Positions 6,148 to 10,605 of a stretch of 10,605 nucleotides of DNA are shown piece by piece (within the stretch, counting starts at the first letter, position 1; every line of letters starts with the position of its first letter). The translations under genes were made by a program, and so were the position numbers. The notes under the pieces were generated by a model. That model ran no database searches and was not told where the DNA came from. It saw nothing but the letters and a program-made list of their open reading frames with translations. The stretch is from JBHIBR01 sp046759145 [NCBI: Nitrospinota bacterium] (lineage in GTDB: Bacteria > UBA8248). The stretch lies in assembly GCA_046759145.1 (NCBI GenBank), contig JBHIBR010000031.1:1-10605 (forward strand), given 5' to 3'.

Positions 6148-6864
6148 ATGGGGGAGCCGATGCGGGCAATCGGACTGGTGGTGCCCTCCCGGAACCGGGT
6201 GATGGAAGCCGATTTCCACCGGAGGGTCCCCCACGATGTGTGCGTGGCGACGAGTCGGGTCTGGAAGGCCCGGGCGCGCGTAGACGTCGCCGCGCTCGAT
6301 GAGGTGCTCGCCCACTTCGAGGAAGCTGCCGAACGGGTGGCGACGACCAAGGTGGACGTCATCATGTTCGGATGTACGTCCGCAAGCTTCATGCACGGGG
6401 CCGAAGCCACCGAGGCCCTCGAGTCGCGCACAAGGGAACAGACCGGCATTCCAACCCTCACGACTTCAACGGCAGTCGCGGAGTGCCTGCGTCGGCTCGG
6501 GGTTCAGAAGGTCGCAATCTTCACACCCTACACCGACGAACTGAACGAAAGGGAGCGGGCCTACTTCGAGGCAAAGGGCTTCCGGGTCTCCAGGGTCGGT
6601 GGGCTGGGGTTCGAAACTAGCGAGGAAAATTACTCTTGCCCGCCCGAGCGGATTCGAGGGCAAGCCCTGGAATTCATGGCGGACGATGACGCCGCACTCT
6701 TCATCAGCTGCACGAACTTTCGCGCCTATCCTGTTGCCTCGGCCCTCGCGCGCGAGCTGGGTCGGACGGTGGTCACCTCCAATATGGCCTCTCTATGGGC
6801 GAGCCTGGAAAGGCTCGGGCATCCGAAAGCCGATTCGATCCTGGCCGAAGGACGGCCCGAGTAG
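6148..6864 (+). CDS. maleate cis-trans isomerase / Asp-Glu racemase superfamily enzyme
   Basis: A 238-residue enzyme of the family that includes maleate isomerase and arylmalonate decarboxylase. Such enzymes act on small dicarboxylic acids without a cofactor, using cysteine. The first catalytic region is V-P-S-R-N (12-16; Asn16 fits the substrate-binding Asn). Cys76 in F-G-C-T-S-A-S-F and Cys188 in I-S-C-T-N-F-R-A correspond to the two catalytic cysteines. Having both agrees with a maleate isomerase or racemase mechanism, because arylmalonate decarboxylase keeps only the second. Length fits the family. ATG 6148 has GAGAG six bases upstream. An in-frame ATG at 6160 is a possible alternative, losing four residues. 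The gene is 101 bases before the MmgE/PrpD gene and probably transcribed with it from the promoter at 5987. The true substrate cannot be named from these motifs. Confidence 0.85.
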   Translation: MGEPMRAIGLVVPSRNRVMEADFHRRVPHDVCVATSRVWKARARVDVAALDEVLAHFEEAAERVATTKVDVIMFGCTSASFMHGAEATEALESRTREQTGIPTLTTSTAVAECLRRLGVQKVAIFTPYTDELNERERAYFEAKGFRVSRVGGLGFETSEENYSCPPERIRGQALEFMADDDAALFISCTNFRAYPVASALARELGRTVVTSNMASLWASLERLGHPKADSILAEGRPE

Positions 6865-6892
6865 CCGCGAATGACGGAAGACTCTACGCCAA

Positions 6893-6951
6893 GGGTGTCG
6901 CGGGATGAAGATGAAGAGCGATCCATTTTGAGATAGCTTCGTCGGACACCC
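6893..6951 (+). promoter_or_regulatory. inverted repeat in the leader of the mmgE/prpD gene
   Basis: GGGTGTC at 6893-6899 and GACACCC at 6945-6951 are perfect 7-base complements separated by 45 bases of less GC-rich DNA. The right arm ends immediately before the ribosome binding site GAGGGGG of the next gene. It could be an operator half-site pair or a long-range RNA stem that limits access to the ribosome site. A 7-base match can also occur by chance. Confidence 0.3.
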
Positions 6952-6965
6952 AGAGGGGGGGCACC

Positions 6966-8336
6966 ATGAGCGTCGCCGAGCGGTTCGCCGAGTTCATCAC
7001 CAGAACCCGCTTCGAAGACCTGCCGCCGGAGACGGTGCGCTTCGCAAAGGAGCTCACGCTCAAGAATGTGGCGGGCATGCTCGCCGGCTCAGCAGAACCG
7101 GCGGCGGGGCCGGTCCTCCACTACGTGCGGGAGCACCGCGGCACTCCCCAGGCCGGTGTGATCGGCTGGGGCTTCCGGACGACGGTGGAGCACGCGGCGC
7201 TCGCCAATGGCTACTTCGCCCACTGCTCGGAGCTCGAGGACGACCAGTTCCCGGGCGGCGGCGTGAGCGCCATCACGGTGTGGCCGGCCCTGTTGCCCCA
7301 GGCGGAGCACCTGGGCCTGAGCGGGCGGGAGTTCCTGGCTGCGGCCGTAGTCGGCGTTGAGGTCCAGAACCGCCTCGCCTACCACATCTCGGCCGAGACG
7401 GACGGGATCGGCATCATGGGGCTCTCCCTCTACGGCGGTTTCGGGAGCGTGGCGGCGGCGGCCAAGGCTTACAGGCTCGACTACGATGCGACCCTCCGGG
7501 CGCTGGGCCTCGCCCTCACCCAAGGCATCGGCTACTGGCTCACGGTGGGGACGAACACGCACTTCTTCGAGTCCGCCGCGGTGTGCCGGAACGGCGTCGT
7601 GGCGGCACAGCTCGCCCGCGAGGGCCTCACGAGCAACCCCGATCTCCAGCGCTGGGTGGACGTGTGGTTCGGGGAGGGGAAGGTGAACCTCTCGCGAGCA
7701 GTGGAGGGGCTGGGGGAGCCACCTTATTTCATCCACAGGATATGGGTGAAGAAGTTCCCCAACTGCTTCTTCATCCACCGCCACATGGACGCCCTCGCCA
7801 TGCTCCTCGCCGAGCGGGCCATCCCTTACGAGCAGGTGGAGCGCGTGGAGGCCCACATCGGCCCCATCGAGAGCATCTGCGACCGGCCCGAGCCGCAGAC
7901 GGAAGGGGACCTGCGCTTCAGCTACCAGCACGCGCTGGGGGCGGTGCTCCTGGGGGAGGAGGTGGGGCTCGAGCTCTTCGAGGAGTCCAAACTCCACGAT
8001 CCGCGCCTGCGGGAGGCGAGGGCCAAGGTCCACACGGTCTACCCCCCCCACTGGCCCCGGCGCTACATGACGGGGGGCGTGGCCCGGGTGGAGCTCCGCC
8101 GCAAGGACGGCACGACCCACGTCAAGGAGCTCGACCAGAGCCTCGGGGCGCCCAAGTACCCCCTCGCCACGGAGCAGTTCGTCGAGATGTATCGCAAATA
8201 CACCCGGCATGTGCTCCCGGAGCGCGAGACCGACCGGACCCTCGAGCTCATCCTGAGCCTCGATGAGCAGCCCGACCTCCGGGAGCTCACGGAGGTCCTC
8301 ACCTTCCGGGCGGGAAAGAGCCCACGGGTCCGGTAG
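6966..8336 (+). CDS. MmgE/PrpD family protein
   Basis: A 456-residue member of the MmgE/PrpD family, which includes 2-methylcitrate dehydratase and cis-aconitate decarboxylase and acts on tricarboxylic or related acids in the cytoplasm. The N-terminal helical domain shows A-A-L-A-N-G-Y-F-A-H-C-S-E-L-E-D-D (77-93), equivalent to the family A-x-A-H-x-L-D-x-D-D motif. The K-K-F-P-N-C-F-F-I-H-R-H-M-D-A segment (262-276) is the K-x-Y-P-x-C-x-x-x-H motif in the second domain. The family motifs vary: usual Asp residues in the first motif appear as Ser-Glu-Leu-Glu. Length is normal. GAGGGGG lies about six bases before the ATG at 6966. It follows the isomerase gene, and both may serve one degradation pathway for a di- or tricarboxylic acid. 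Such proteins are often misnamed, so the substrate is left open. Confidence 0.9.
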   Translation: MSVAERFAEFITRTRFEDLPPETVRFAKELTLKNVAGMLAGSAEPAAGPVLHYVREHRGTPQAGVIGWGFRTTVEHAALANGYFAHCSELEDDQFPGGGVSAITVWPALLPQAEHLGLSGREFLAAAVVGVEVQNRLAYHISAETDGIGIMGLSLYGGFGSVAAAAKAYRLDYDATLRALGLALTQGIGYWLTVGTNTHFFESAAVCRNGVVAAQLAREGLTSNPDLQRWVDVWFGEGKVNLSRAVEGLGEPPYFIHRIWVKKFPNCFFIHRHMDALAMLLAERAIPYEQVERVEAHIGPIESICDRPEPQTEGDLRFSYQHALGAVLLGEEVGLELFEESKLHDPRLREARAKVHTVYPPHWPRRYMTGGVARVELRRKDGTTHVKELDQSLGAPKYPLATEQFVEMYRKYTRHVLPERETDRTLELILSLDEQPDLRELTEVLTFRAGKSPRVR

Positions 8337-8440: not shown

Positions 8441-8548
8441 ATGACGCCTCATACGCCAACTTCTAAATGGATGCAAACCGCGGATGGCTCTTCCCTTGGA
8501 AAGTCCATTGGCGTACGCGAAATTGTGGCTCTGGAGGATCAAACGTGA
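8441..8548 (+). CDS. possible 35-aa leader ORF, coupled to the lipoprotein gene
   Basis: An ATG at 8441, preceded by AGGGTGA about five bases upstream, opens a 35-codon frame (start M-T-P-H-T-P-T-S-K-W, end A-L-E-D-Q-T). Its stop TGA (8546-8548) overlaps the GTG start of the lipoprotein gene as GTGA. That four-base overlap is the usual arrangement of translationally coupled genes. The product is polar, has no signal or membrane segment and is not recognised. It may be a regulatory leader peptide, the tail of a decayed gene or chance. Confidence 0.25.
   Translation: MTPHTPTSKWMQTADGSSLGKSIGVREIVALEDQT
8452..8515. repeat. 8-base inverted repeat upstream of the lipoprotein gene
   Basis: TACGCCAA (8452-8459) and TTGGCGTA (8508-8515) are perfect inverted copies 48 bases apart. 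Sequence inside each arm is also partly matched (ATGGA at 8467-8471 and TCCAT at 8504-8508). The second arm overlaps the palindrome GCGTACGC (8511-8518). It may be a regulator site or an RNA stem before the lipoprotein gene. No transposase or target duplication is seen. Confidence 0.35.
8533..8537 (+). promoter_or_regulatory. ribosome binding site fixing the lipoprotein start
   Basis: GGAGG lies seven bases before the GTG at 8545, an ideal distance. It supports this start over the in-frame ATG at 8467, which would add 26 residues that do not suit a lipoprotein signal peptide. Confidence 0.65.
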
Positions 8549-9084
8549 GACAGATCTCTCAATCCCTGCGGATAGTGAAGGGAACGCGATGTTATCCCTT
8601 GGTCCTGGGGATACTCTGCATTCTTACAGCGGGCTGTGCGACAGCCACGCTTAAGATGTACGAGGGCCCGGAAAAGCCCAGGGGGACGGTCGCTGTTATT
8701 GTGAACGAGGGATGGGGTTTATGGATAAGGAATGTGGATGGCAAGGATGTAGAAGTTGCATCTCATAGGGCTTTGTTTCAGGACTACTCAAGTGTCGCCC
8801 TCGAACCAGGCGAGCATCGCTTGGGCGTATCCTATGACACACTGACTCAAGTGCCGGAGTTCATATACGTTTACCATAAAGATTTTTCCCTTAAAGTGAC
8901 TGTTAAGGGCGGCCATACGTACGCCCTCAGGTATACAACGTCGGGGGGTCCGTTTGAGCCGTATATGCGCGTGTGGGTTGAAGATTCATCTACCGGAGAG
9001 AAGATCGCAACCGCATCGGGAATAGTAGAAACAGAGGAATTCGGTCCATTTAACGGGGATCTCCGTGAGGGTCGTTGTGACTGA
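8545..9084 (+). CDS. putative outer-membrane or periplasmic lipoprotein
   Basis: From the GTG at 8545 this encodes 179 residues. The N-terminus has a type II signal peptide: basic residues (Arg9, Lys12, Arg15), a hydrophobic stretch (17-27) and a lipobox L-T-A-G-C with the lipidated cysteine at 31. The mature part begins C-A-T-A-T-L-K-M-Y-E-G-P and contains a short beta-rich region with V-A-L-E-P-G-E-H-R-L-G-V-S-Y and V-K-G-G-H-T-Y-A-L-R-Y. This pattern is seen in many small lipoproteins whose domain resembles PEGA-like or carboxypeptidase-regulatory folds. Function is unknown. Codon use and base composition are noticeably less GC-rich than in the genes to its left, which suggests a different origin. 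A possible 35-codon ORF is coupled upstream. The proteasome-like gene converges on it from the right. Another in-frame GTG (8575) would give a shorter signal peptide but lacks a good ribosome site. Confidence 0.8.
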   Translation: MRQISQSLRIVKGTRCYPLVLGILCILTAGCATATLKMYEGPEKPRGTVAVIVNEGWGLWIRNVDGKDVEVASHRALFQDYSSVALEPGEHRLGVSYDTLTQVPEFIYVYHKDFSLKVTVKGGHTYALRYTTSGGPFEPYMRVWVEDSSTGEKIATASGIVETEEFGPFNGDLREGRCD

Positions 9085-9378
9085 TAGAAAAGGATGTGTT
9101 TAGATCGAAAACGGAATCCGTGCTGAGATTGCAAAAGGGCTACGTGAGCCAGAATCCCGCGACGTTTCGAACCGGATGATTCGCGTCCGCTCATCCAGCT
9201 CTGGCGGCTCGCAGCCGATGGCCGCCGGGGAAGATGACAGATGGGGCTGCTTCTGGAGGCTGGCCTCCTAGATGTCTTCTCCGGGACCTGCCAATCCACC
9301 GTGCCGGATACATTGCCAATCTCTCTCCTGGGTCTTCTGACCCCTGTCCTGTTCCCGCTCATCATCGGGCCCTCCCCC
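9085..9378. other. convergent intergenic region, 294 bases
   Basis: This lies between the ends of the lipoprotein and proteasome-like genes. No coding signal is convincing. Two hairpins could end transcription: CTGGCGGC/GCCGCCGG at 9201-9228, which contains an alternative inner stem CGGCT-cgc-AGCCG, and GGAGG-ctgg-CCTCC near 9255-9268 (6-bp palindrome). Neither has a clear T-run. Confidence 0.45.
9201..9228. terminator. hairpin between convergent genes
   Basis: CTGGCGGC (9201-9208) pairs with GCCGCCGG (9221-9228) over 8 bp with one G-T pair and a 12-base loop. It could terminate the lipoprotein transcript or slow RNA polymerase from either side. No poly-T follows, so this is a weak call. Confidence 0.25.
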
Positions 9379-10110
9379 TCAAGGGGCCAGAGGACTCGGC
9401 TCCCACAGGTCGAGGAGGAGCTTGCGAAAGGTTTGGACCTTGGGCCGACAGCTCCGCATCAACTCGTATATCCCGTTCTCGCTGACGCGCTCAAATCCAT
9501 TCCGGAGTGTCACCGTCGCGGCTTGGATAGGTCCCCCGACCGTGGCTTCAACGGTCATCGTTTCTAACATCAAGAACACAGCCAGCTCCTTGAGCTGGTC
9601 CACCATCATCTCGGGATAGTGGGATTTTTTCGCCAAGTAATGTGCGACGTGGTAATGTGCGGCCAAAAACATCGGGTTGAGGACCCCTTCCGCTTGAAAT
9701 GCCCTCGAACTCTGAAACGATGTCACCTTAAATTGGTTCGTGTGCACACTGTCATAACCCGCCAGGATGAACCCCACAAATCCTTGAGGGGCTGCTTCCG
9801 GCTGCGCGTTTGCCCAGTTGTTGAATTCCTCCTGGAAAATTCCCTGCGCGGCCTTTTCAATCTCTTGGAAACTCGGGAACCGCTGCCGCTTAGCCTCCTC
9901 CACCAGGCGGCTGATGCCGCTGTATCCGGGCTCGGCCAAGCCATAAGTGAGCACGCCAATATCCCTGTTGACCTGTAAGAACTTTTCGGAGGTGTCTCGG
10001 GTCATCTCCTGAATCCGGCCGGTCGCCGGATCCGCTCCCACCGACGTCACGCGGCTATCCGTGCCCAGTACCAGCCCGTTGCAGCCCCGGAGCGCCAAGG
10101 CCAGGGTCAT
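9379..10110 (-). CDS. proteasome-fold Ntn hydrolase (beta-subunit-like), catalytic residues kept
   Basis: A 243-residue protein with the proteasome/HslV/Anbu Ntn-hydrolase fold. After removal of Met1 the chain would begin with Thr1, as in active beta subunits. G-L-V-L-G-T-D-S-R places Asp17 and Arg19 exactly as in proteasome G-x-x-x-A-x-D-S-R. Lys42 in S-E-K-F-L-Q-V-N fits Lys33 of the family, with about nine extra residues in the loop before it. Later motifs are D-I-G-V-L-T-Y-G, F-V-G-F-I-L-A-G-Y-D (111-120) and E-L-A-V-F-L-M-L-E-T (175-184), followed by V-E-A-T-V-G-G where proteasomes usually have R-D-A-x-S-G-G. Proteolytic or amidohydrolytic activity is inferred. Length is close to proteasome subunits and longer than HslV. 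A perfect AGGAGGT precedes the ATG. It follows a paralogous gene after 27 bases. It could be related to Anbu, but the sequence is not clearly that family. Confidence 0.75.
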   Translation of the reverse strand: MTLALALRGCNGLVLGTDSRVTSVGADPATGRIQEMTRDTSEKFLQVNRDIGVLTYGLAEPGYSGISRLVEEAKRQRFPSFQEIEKAAQGIFQEEFNNWANAQPEAAPQGFVGFILAGYDSVHTNQFKVTSFQSSRAFQAEGVLNPMFLAAHYHVAHYLAKKSHYPEMMVDQLKELAVFLMLETMTVEATVGGPIQAATVTLRNGFERVSENGIYELMRSCRPKVQTFRKLLLDLWEPSPLAP

Positions 10111-10113
10111 ATT

Positions 10114-10120
10114 ACCTCCT
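10114..10120 (-). promoter_or_regulatory. strong Shine-Dalgarno before the proteasome-like gene
   Basis: AGGAGGT on the minus strand, three bases before the ATG at 10110-10108. It is a full match to the anti-SD and lies in the 27-base gap after the upstream paralog, showing that the downstream subunit is translated strongly in its own right. Confidence 0.7.
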
Positions 10121-10137
10121 GCCGGGGGCAGTCCTAG

Positions 10138-10605
10138 CTAAAACAGACCGATGCAGCCGAGTGCGAGCCGATGCGATTTCTGCCTGGCGAGTTCGAGAAA
10201 CCGCCGAATGACGTCCTCGGCCTCCCACTGAAAGCCCCTTTCCCGGTCGACCGTTGCCATCGCAATGTGGGGCCGGACCTCGGGGAGCGCCAGATGGGTT
10301 TCCGAAATGAGAAATACGGCCAGTTCTCGGCTGAGCTCCAAAGAGAGATTCCGGTTCCATATGCGGTCCATGAGATATCGGGCGATCGATGAATAGGATC
10401 CAATGAACAGATTTCCCGGGAAAGCCTCTACCTTCACCTCCTTTTCAGTCCACATGATCTCCCTCACCGCATCGTCATCAACCCCGGCAGGGTCGATGCC
10501 GGCCACCGCCATCCCGACATTAGGGCCACCGCCCGGCGGGTTCGCTTTCACATATGCCGCCAGAGACTGAGCGAAATCCCCCGCCTTCGTGGGAAGAGGG
10601 TGAGT
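10138..10605 (-). CDS. second proteasome-fold Ntn hydrolase homologue, C-terminal part
   Basis: The minus-strand frame is open from the window edge (reading T-H-P-L-P-T-K-A-G-D-F) to a TAG at 10140-10138, so 155 C-terminal residues are visible and the N-terminus lies beyond the window. A GTG at 10551 is not a likely start, because homology to the neighbour begins before it. It aligns through its length with the 9379-10110 protein: N-V-G-M-A-V-A-G-I-D against F-V-G-F-I-L-A-G-Y-D, S-S-I-A-R-Y-L against Y-H-V-A-H-Y-L, and E-L-A-V-F-L-I-S-E-T against E-L-A-V-F-L-M-L-E-T. It is therefore a diverged paralog. The region facing the active site lacks the V-E-A-T-V-G-G of its partner and has L-A-L-P-E-V-R-P instead. 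It may be a structural or altered subunit, but the missing N-terminus must be seen before calling it inactive. It is transcribed first, 27 bases ahead of the partner gene. Confidence 0.65.
   Translation of the reverse strand, partial: THPLPTKAGDFAQSLAAYVKANPPGGGPNVGMAVAGIDPAGVDDDAVREIMWTEKEVKVEAFPGNLFIGSYSSIARYLMDRIWNRNLSLELSRELAVFLISETHLALPEVRPHIAMATVDRERGFQWEAEDVIRRFLELARQKSHRLALGCIGLF

What the first reader, a model, noticed from the sequence alone, without database searches (positions are those of the whole stretch)
9379..10605. Tandem paralogous proteasome-fold hydrolases in one operon
Two adjacent genes, 27 bases apart, encode homologous Ntn-hydrolase-fold proteins (shared A-G-x-D and E-L-A-V-F-L-x-x-E-T blocks). 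Known bacterial relatives outside actinobacteria (HslV, Anbu) are mostly single-subunit particles, while a catalytic plus non-catalytic pair is the design of the 20S proteasome. A two-subunit bacterial proteasome-like complex would be unusual and may be undescribed. No unfoldase, tagging enzyme or ubiquitin-like partner is visible within the window.
Basis: partly seen in the sequence, partly recalled or inferred. Interest (0 to 1): 0.75.

Follow-up and report, generated by a model that had tools for sequence, protein, structure and literature searches.

The report
Two-part proteasome-like pair beside toxins
Two neighbouring bacterial genes encode a cutting and a probably non-cutting relative of the proteasome; the same pair was found in three other bacteria, each time in a tight row with a small acidic protein and a self-poisoning toxin, which suggests a dedicated protein shredder wired to a toxin switch.

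Summary
Gene A (9379-10110, -) and truncated gene B (10138-10605, -) lie 27 bases apart and are homologous (profile-profile E 5.6e-19), with the proteasome fold. The same B-A pair occurs in three Chloroflexota genomes (L001, L002, L099). The four A's form one clade and the four B's another: an inherited pair, not a recent tandem copy. A keeps Thr/Asp/Lys/Gly of the proteasome active site in 4 of 4; B has lost Thr, Lys and Gly in 3 of 3 complete copies. B is under purifying selection (dN/dS about 0.23). In the three complete loci the operon runs B-A-small acidic protein-toxin (MazF, MazF, PIN). Single proteasome homologues of Chloroflexota have like neighbours in 7 of 46 loci (Doc x4, ParE, RelE, MazF). 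I propose a dedicated two-subunit proteasome-like peptidase that controls a toxin-antitoxin-type module, most likely by destroying the antitoxin. The window itself shows no toxin; B's upstream side is cut off. Complex, activity and substrate are untested. The one broad survey of proteasome homologues found reports no telling gene context. New variant of a known kind.

The parts
9379..10110 (-). Gene A: catalytic proteasome-like subunit, 243 aa, starts Met-Thr; Thr2, Asp18, Lys43, Gly57 correspond to proteasome Thr1, Asp17, Lys33, Gly47
   Evidence: PF00227 E 2.2e-4; PDB profile search finds proteasome subunits; the four residues are invariant in 4 of 4 A sequences
10138..10605 (-). Gene B (5' part outside the window): probably non-catalytic proteasome-like subunit, last 155 aa
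   Evidence: homologous to A (E 5.6e-19), groups with the complete B's (96/95), which lack Thr1, Lys33, Gly47
10111..10137 (-). 27-base spacer B-A (28 bases in L099, 4-base overlap in L001 and L002): one transcription unit inferred

Best explanation
A and B are the two subunits of a small proteasome-like peptidase. A is the active subunit: Met1 is removed, Thr becomes the N-terminal nucleophile, and the enzyme works only in an assembled particle (inferred from proteasomes). B is an inactive partner that builds, gates or targets the particle, like an alpha subunit (inferred). The particle belongs to a toxin-antitoxin-type operon, order B-A-small acidic protein-toxin. Most likely it destroys the free, poorly folded small protein (the antitoxin) under stress or infection without an ATPase, which frees the toxin (MazF or PIN RNase) and stops growth. 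Shown: homology, conserved pairing, active-site retention and loss, purifying selection, recurrent toxin neighbours. Inferred: complex, proteolysis, substrate, trigger. In the window copy the toxin half is not visible: absent downstream, unknown upstream.
For: Pairing: B lies directly upstream of A in 4 of 4 loci (window; L001, L002; L099), and A's and B's are separate clades (100/100 and 96/95). Active site: T2/D18/K43/G57 in 4 of 4 A's; in 3 of 3 complete B's the residue aligned with Thr1 is Lys/Lys/Asn, with Lys33 Val/Ala/Ser, with Gly47 Asp/Asp/Pro, Asp17 being kept. Selection, L001 against L002: dN/dS about 0.23 (B), 0.12 (A), 0.18 (small protein), 0.05 (MazF); dS is near or above 1, so the ratios are rough. 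Fold: B's model matches proteasome chains over 187-205 residues at Z 16, an archaeal alpha subunit first in Foldseek (3h4p_A, E 1.3e-6); A's model has Anbu first (E 7.3e-5, TM 0.40). Operon: small protein + MazF in L001 and L002, small protein + PIN in L099 (E 7.3e-11); flanks of L001 and L002 differ, so the four genes seem to move as a unit. The three small proteins have pI 4.1-4.3. Same architecture around single homologues: 7 of 46 loci carry Fic/Doc (4), ParE, RelE or MazF downstream, in four separate places of the tree; in G495 and G415 that Doc is the genome's only Fic match.
Against: The window has no MazF or small-protein relative in six frames and 294 bases without a convincing gene downstream of A, so the pair can occur without that toxin half, or it lies upstream outside the window. 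Only four pairs are known. No complex, activity or substrate was tested. The toxin could follow defence-island life in general: L002 and L099 lie among restriction-modification genes. 39 of the 46 single-type loci have no Pfam toxin downstream, and the pattern was noticed in the same loci in which it was counted. Both AF2 models are of low confidence (pLDDT 55 and 54), and B's alignment included A rows. Among the single homologues nearest to the pair (L101-L107, L109) I saw no toxin gene downstream on reading; L108 has a PIN gene (E 1e-10) upstream of the homologue, not downstream.
Confidence: 0.45

Rival explanations
1. The pair works the other way round: the small protein is an adaptor that delivers the toxin to the A-B peptidase, so A-B is part of the antidote (as SocA hands SocB to ClpXP).
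For: Same operon evidence. The small proteins look different with MazF and with PIN while A-B stays, as expected of adaptors. SocA as a proteolytic adaptor is described in PMC8832971 (passage).
Against: Toxins of these families are compact and stable, a poor substrate without an ATPase (recalled knowledge); no PF16450 ATPase in 9 of 9 genomes, though other unfoldases were not searched for there.
Confidence: 0.2
2. A-B is a free-standing peptidase; toxin modules are chance or defence-island neighbours.
For: The window pair has no toxin module in view; most single homologues have none downstream (39 of 46); L002 and L099 sit among restriction-modification genes.
Against: 3 of 3 complete loci have the same order on one strand with spacers of at most 28 bases or short overlaps. 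Downstream toxins in 7 of 46 single-type loci against one HigB match among 122 upstream ORFs (Fisher p 0.03); chance at an assumed 1-2% of genes would be 4e-7 to 3e-5.
Confidence: 0.22
3. A forms the particle alone, as HslV or Anbu do; B is a pseudo-enzyme that regulates or inhibits A without being built into the ring.
For: Single homologues are the rule in the Chloroflexota samples. B has a higher dN than A (0.21 against 0.13) and long branches.
Against: B is kept in 4 of 4 loci, upstream and close to A, and its model keeps the fold.
Confidence: 0.12
4. A is not a protease but a specific transferase or ligase, as connectase is.
For: Connectase shows that the fold can do this (PMC8665760, abstract).
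Against: Connectase is monomeric and has a two-helix insertion between strands 3 and 4 (PMC8665760); I see no insertion of that size in the A's, apart from about ten extra residues in window A. Weak evidence.
Confidence: 0.05

Closest known systems
20S proteasome (alpha + beta subunits)
   Same: Two homologous subunits, one with Thr/Asp/Lys, one without; profile of A and model of B match proteasome subunits.
   Different: L001 A scores at most 23.8 bits on proteasome equivalog models with cut-offs of 219 and more, L001 B none; B lacks the alpha N-terminal helical extension and starts at strand 1, A has no propeptide (starts as called); no PF16450 ATPase in 9 of 9 genomes; toxin-type operon.
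Anbu, HslV, BPH and the 22 further homologue families of Fuchs, Alva and Lupas 2021 (PMC8665760)
   Same: Bacterial proteasome homologues with the Thr/Asp/Lys/Gly site; Anbu is the first Foldseek match of A's model (E 7.3e-5).
   Different: No pair is mentioned in the parts of the paper that I read (2-4 of 6); the words tandem, operon and toxin do not occur in its main text, and it states that no genomic context suggestive of a function was found.
Type II toxin-antitoxin modules (mazEF, vapBC, phd-doc, relBE/parDE)
   Same: Toxin of a known family preceded by a small, mostly acidic protein on the same strand.
   Different: One or two proteasome-like genes come first in the row; the small proteins scanned pass no Pfam cut-off.
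RosmerTA (ImmA protease antitoxin) and SocAB (proteolytic adaptor)
   Same: Proteolysis built into a toxin-antitoxin system (PMC10440598 and PMC8832971, passages).
   Different: ImmA is a metalloprotease (recalled) and ClpXP is a shared housekeeping enzyme; the word proteasome does not occur in either paper's main text.

Membership tests
Proteasome superfamily (Pfam PF00227, Ntn-hydrolase fold) | Profile score above the curated cut-off | tested here: inconclusive
   Window A 21.3 bits against 22.4; orthologue L001 A 40.2 bits, passed; B not passed
Proteasome superfamily (Pfam PF00227, Ntn-hydrolase fold) | Fold: two sheets between two pairs of helices | tested here: met
   A: Z 10.0 with Anbu over 170 residues, rmsd 4.4, best Z 10.8 over 84 residues; B: Z 16 over 187-205 residues; model confidence low
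Proteasome superfamily (Pfam PF00227, Ntn-hydrolase fold) | N-terminal Thr with Asp17, Lys33, Gly47 in the active subunit | tested here: met
   T2, D18, K43, G57 invariant in 4 of 4 A's
20S proteasome | Catalytic beta plus non-catalytic alpha homologue | tested here: met
   B lacks Thr, Lys and Gly in 3 of 3 complete copies; window B too short to tell
20S proteasome | Alpha N-terminal helical extension before strand 1 | tested here: not met
   B's start at strand 1 in L001, L002 and L099; start sites are inferred, and longer frames with other starts exist in L001 and L002
20S proteasome | Equivalog models of proteasome alpha/beta (NCBIfam) | tested here: not met
   L001 A: best 23.8 bits against 219; L001 B: no hit; window A and B: no such hit
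20S proteasome | Cognate ATPase (Mpa/ARC/PAN type) | tested here: inconclusive
   PF16450: 0 of 9 genomes, among them G001 and G002; the control also rings in E. coli, so the model is not clean, and MAGs may be incomplete; the window's genome is not held
Anbu / HslV / BPH / 22 further families | Membership of one of the published sequence clusters | not testable with these tools
   Reference alignments are not held; only parts of the paper were read
Type II toxin-antitoxin module (the neighbours in L001, L002, L099) | Toxin of a known family and small upstream partner | tested here: met
   L001, L002: PemK 8.2e-12 and 5.5e-13; L099: PIN 7.3e-11
Type II toxin-antitoxin module (the window's own pair) | Toxin of a known family and small upstream partner | tested here: inconclusive
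   No MazF or small-protein relative in the window; the side upstream of B is not in the window
Type II toxin-antitoxin module (the neighbours in L001, L002, L099) | Small partner neutralises the toxin | not tested
   Needs an experiment; no Pfam match for these small proteins

The most novel reading that the evidence does not exclude
Bacteria have built dedicated proteasomes into toxin-antitoxin operons several times; the B-A pair is the two-subunit form, a heteromeric proteasome-like particle that senses infection or stress by degrading one disordered guardian protein and so releases a growth-stopping RNase, as part of anti-phage defence.
Probability: 0.3. Interest if true: 0.88.

Novelty: new variant of a known kind. 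Interest (0 to 1): 0.66.

Why it matters
Twenty-two families of prokaryotic proteasome homologues were described in 2021 with hardly a clue to their function, and that survey found no telling gene context (PMC8665760). A recurring place in toxin-antitoxin operons would give some of them a job that can be tested in E. coli, and would answer how an ATP-independent proteasome-like particle finds a substrate: its substrate is encoded next door. An active/inactive subunit pair outside the known 20S families would also be a second case of the alpha/beta division of labour.

Tried and rejected
Chance similarity of A and B: rejected. B as a broken fragment: rejected, dN/dS about 0.23 and open in 3 of 3 complete copies. 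A recent tandem duplication in the window: rejected by the tree. A phage or plasmid gene: no relative of A in viral contigs, phages or plasmids at the settings used. A toxin or small-protein remnant in the window: none in six frames; the 164-aa minus-strand ORF at 8871-9365 has no Pfam match and overlaps a likely lipoprotein gene on the other strand (my reading), so I took it as spurious. Known defence proteins: no PADLOC match for the window's A and partial B, L001 A and B, the small proteins and MazF of L001, the small protein of L002, or the small protein and PIN of L099. Window's organism: no whole genome is held, so it stays unknown. VIA rows list no HslV; that says nothing. The pattern scan gave no promoter and terminator-like sites near the shuffled level (3 against 1.6). 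Literature: ten searches listed no paper that I recognised as reporting a proteasome homologue in a toxin-antitoxin operon; some lists were capped (20 of 126, 10 of 23, 15 of 32), and the library holds openly licensed papers only. PMC8165232 (passages) discusses a possible link between the mycobacterial Pup-proteasome and toxin-antitoxin turnover; nothing on a shared operon in the passages seen. PMC8195603 and PMC11980606 were searched for terms only.

Counting notes: the 46 single-type loci are the 49 without L052, L055 and L082; L044, L079 and L084 have 0, 1 and 420 bases of room downstream and were left in. Near-identical loci (such as L046, L047, L050) were not collapsed. Of the neighbouring ORFs, 115 of 126 downstream and 122 of 145 upstream were scanned (those at or near contig or locus ends left out); one search shows 25 of 32 families. 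The toxin pattern was first noticed in loci that are part of the count (L023 = L063, L024 = L067), so the count is not an independent test. The 1-2% chance rate is my assumption, guided by 1-10 MazF (5 genomes) and 1-6 Fic (9 genomes) matches per genome. SocA/Panacea-like and HEPN-like readings of some neighbours (L053, L017, L038) have no Pfam support.

Full report
What is in the window. Two genes at the right end of the window, on the minus strand, are as described: A at 9379-10110 (243 aa) and the end of B at 10138-10605 (155 aa, open at the window's edge), 27 bases apart. Window A is a borderline Pfam proteasome hit (E 2.2e-4, 21.3 bits against a cut-off of 22.4) and window B has none. The gene left of A, at 8467-9084 on the other strand, is a likely lipoprotein gene by my reading (no Pfam match above cut-off), so A is the last gene of its unit as far as can be seen.

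Relatives. One scan of the genome collection (one genome for each of 84,980 species) with six exact peptide patterns of window A, which finds close relatives only, gave 17 candidate stretches and two relatives, both at 49% identity, in Chloroflexota MAGs (L001 Chloroflexi bacterium, L002 Anaerolineae bacterium). A profile of the three A's was then run on samples of Chloroflexota genomes: 400 of the phylum, 3 and 1 of two orders, 396 of one class and 353 of another; the samples overlap. Besides G001 and G002 (the genomes of L001 and L002) one more close relative came up, G764 (E 2.6e-83); the other matches were much weaker (2.5e-20 or worse). In all three genomes a B gene lies directly upstream of A: overlapping by four bases in L001 and L002, 28 bases away in G764 (L099). 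So the pair is rare but is kept in 4 of 4 loci. No relative of A was found in viral contigs, phages or plasmids.

One family, two subunits. The four A's and four B's are homologous (hhalign probability 99.1, E 5.6e-19). In a tree of 32 proteasome homologues the A's form one group (100/100) and the B's another (96/95), the window's partial B included; B branches are long, so their depth is unsure. An earlier tree without L099 and the window's B joined A's and B's as one group (99/89). The split thus precedes the divergence of the four loci: this is a two-gene system passed on as such. Between L001 and L002, dN/dS is about 0.23 for B and 0.12 for A (dS 0.9-1.1, so rough): B is under purifying selection.

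Active site. All four A's have Thr2, Asp18, Lys43 and Gly57 (window numbering), the counterparts of Thr1, Asp17, Lys33 and Gly47 named in PMC8665760 (section 3.3). The three complete B's keep the Asp but have Lys, Lys and Asn at Thr1, Val, Ala and Ser at Lys33 (a Lys lies three columns on in L099 B), and Asp, Asp and Pro at Gly47. L002 B starts Met-Thr, but that Thr is one residue out of register. I infer that A is the enzyme and B is not. Whether the window's own B is the same cannot be read, since its N-terminus is missing.

Fold. The profile of three A's finds proteasome subunits in the PDB (best 1.3e-6); window A alone does not; the profile of four B's finds them only weakly (best 0.0039). 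The AF2 model of window A (pLDDT 55, pTM 0.57) has Anbu as its first Foldseek match (E 7.3e-5, TM 0.40; Z 10.0 over 170 residues, rmsd 4.4). The model of L001 B (pLDDT 54, pTM 0.55; A sequences were in its alignment) matches proteasome chains with Foldseek E 1.3e-6 (3h4p_A, named proteasome alpha) and Z 16 over 187-205 residues. Both models are of low confidence, but the matches shown are nearly all to one superfamily.

Operon context elsewhere. In L001 and L002 the two genes are followed, on the same strand and with spacers of 2-17 bases or a 4-base overlap, by a 119-aa protein without Pfam match and a MazF/PemK toxin (E 8.2e-12 and 5.5e-13). Their flanks differ: metabolic genes by my reading in L001; a Type III-like methyltransferase before (PF01555 5.1e-16; PADLOC MTase_III 2.2e-21) and a sub-threshold ResIII match after (0.0014) in L002. 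In L099 the order is B, A, an 89-aa protein and a PIN-domain toxin (E 7.3e-11); a Type IIG restriction-modification gene (PADLOC 3.1e-85) starts 1.3 kb from B and a GmrSD gene about 10 kb on. So the same pair goes with two different toxins; the three small proteins are acidic (pI 4.1-4.3), as antitoxins often are. The small protein of L001/L002 is under purifying selection (dN/dS about 0.18).

The same arrangement around single homologues. A profile of nine single Chloroflexota homologues (alignment A5) found hits in 25 of 400 genomes of the phylum at E 0.001 and 27 of 396 of the class at E 1e-8, A itself among them. Around 46 such loci, 7 have a Pfam toxin as first or second gene downstream on the same strand: Fic/Doc in L067, L069, L070, L071; ParE in L035; RelE in L072 (E 1.5e-5, 25.6 bits, just under its cut-off of 27); MazF in L063. 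Of 122 upstream ORFs one is a toxin (HigB). In G495 and G415 the Doc is the only Fic-family match of the genome. On the tree the toxin-linked homologues lie in four separate places among unlinked ones. A small ORF of 70-125 aa lies between homologue and toxin in L035, L063, L067, L070, L071 and L072; in L069 none of 50 aa or more was listed. 39 of 46 loci show no such toxin, the small ORFs of L070 and L071 are not acidic (pI 9.4 and 6.2), and the pattern was first noticed in loci that are part of this count.

How it may work. Antitoxins are usually partly unfolded and short-lived (established knowledge), and 20S particles can clear unstructured proteins without ATP (summarised in PMC8665760, discussion). 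G001 and G002 have no other PF00227 match at E 0.01, though the A5 profile finds two further divergent homologues in G002 (contigs C449 and C342); neither genome has a PF16450 match. The simplest reading is a private proteasome-like particle, A active and B structural or gating, whose substrate is the small protein encoded next to it; its loss frees the toxin. The reverse, in which the small protein hands the toxin to the particle, is not excluded. Everything from complex formation on is inference.

What is against. The window copy has no toxin module in view: none downstream, and upstream is cut off. Four pairs are few; the three named or sampled hosts are Chloroflexota genomes, and two of these three loci lie among restriction-modification genes, where toxins may be common anyway. 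The single homologues nearest to the pair (L101-L107, L109) show no toxin gene downstream on reading; in L108 a PIN gene (E 1e-10) lies upstream. A homologue in L110 sits behind a Cdc48-type ATPase, so some relatives may well use an unfoldase. The chance rate used for the enrichment is an assumption.

Known or new. Proteasome homologues of bacteria are known in many families (PMC8665760; I saw the outline and abstract, parts 2-4 of 6 and a term search). That paper reports no suggestive genomic context, and the words tandem, operon and toxin do not occur in its main text. Ten literature searches listed no report of the link (some lists were capped). I rate it a new variant of a known kind: a two-subunit proteasome-like pair in toxin-antitoxin-type operons.

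Noticed in passing
L067 2353-2972, L069 811-1266, L070 820-1487, L071 2376-3040, L035 980-1508, L072 802-1486, L063 2354-3071: Single proteasome homologues of Chloroflexota directly upstream of a Doc, ParE, RelE or MazF toxin, in all but L069 with a small ORF between: a wider pattern than the tandem pair.
   Followed up: partly
L110 3550-6450 (G272): A Cdc48-type AAA ATPase gene (CDC48_N E 1.3e-13, two AAA stretches) ends 49 bases upstream of a proteasome homologue that is split into two open frames: a bacterial Cdc48-proteasome-homologue neighbourhood.
   Followed up: partly
L010 1-2319 (= L032): Proteasome homologue directly after an E1/ThiF-like gene (ThiF E 1.3e-7, BilD model 1.7e-14): possible ubiquitin-like conjugation plus peptidase unit.
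   Followed up: no
L029 2930-8106: Rhizobium plasmid: a hypothetical protein that matches a proteasome homologue over 16% of its length (E 5e-6) lies about 1.4 kb from a multiubiquitin-domain protein and a ThiF adenylyltransferase.
   Followed up: no
L080 1486-2805 (G498): A JAB-domain gene (Prok-JAB E 5.2e-24) lies upstream of a proteasome homologue on the same strand.
   Followed up: no
L108 4280-6161 (G796): A PIN-domain gene (E 1e-10) with a 97-aa ORF before it lies upstream of a single proteasome homologue on the same strand.
   Followed up: no
L100 2732-4276 (G764): A third proteasome homologue (PF00227 E 8.4e-15) about 12 kb from the B-A pair, followed by a DUF5678 protein and an aspartyl-protease-like protein, beside a GmrSD gene.
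   Followed up: no
L053 1802-2269; L017 1053-1484: Proteasome homologues next to a gene that I read as SocA/Panacea-like; Pfam does not confirm it.
   Followed up: no
L064, L068: Two related homologues are followed by an AAA_15/AAA_21 ATPase gene.
   Followed up: no
window 6148-8336: Arylmalonate-decarboxylase-like gene next to an MmgE/PrpD gene: perhaps a small catabolic unit.
   Followed up: no
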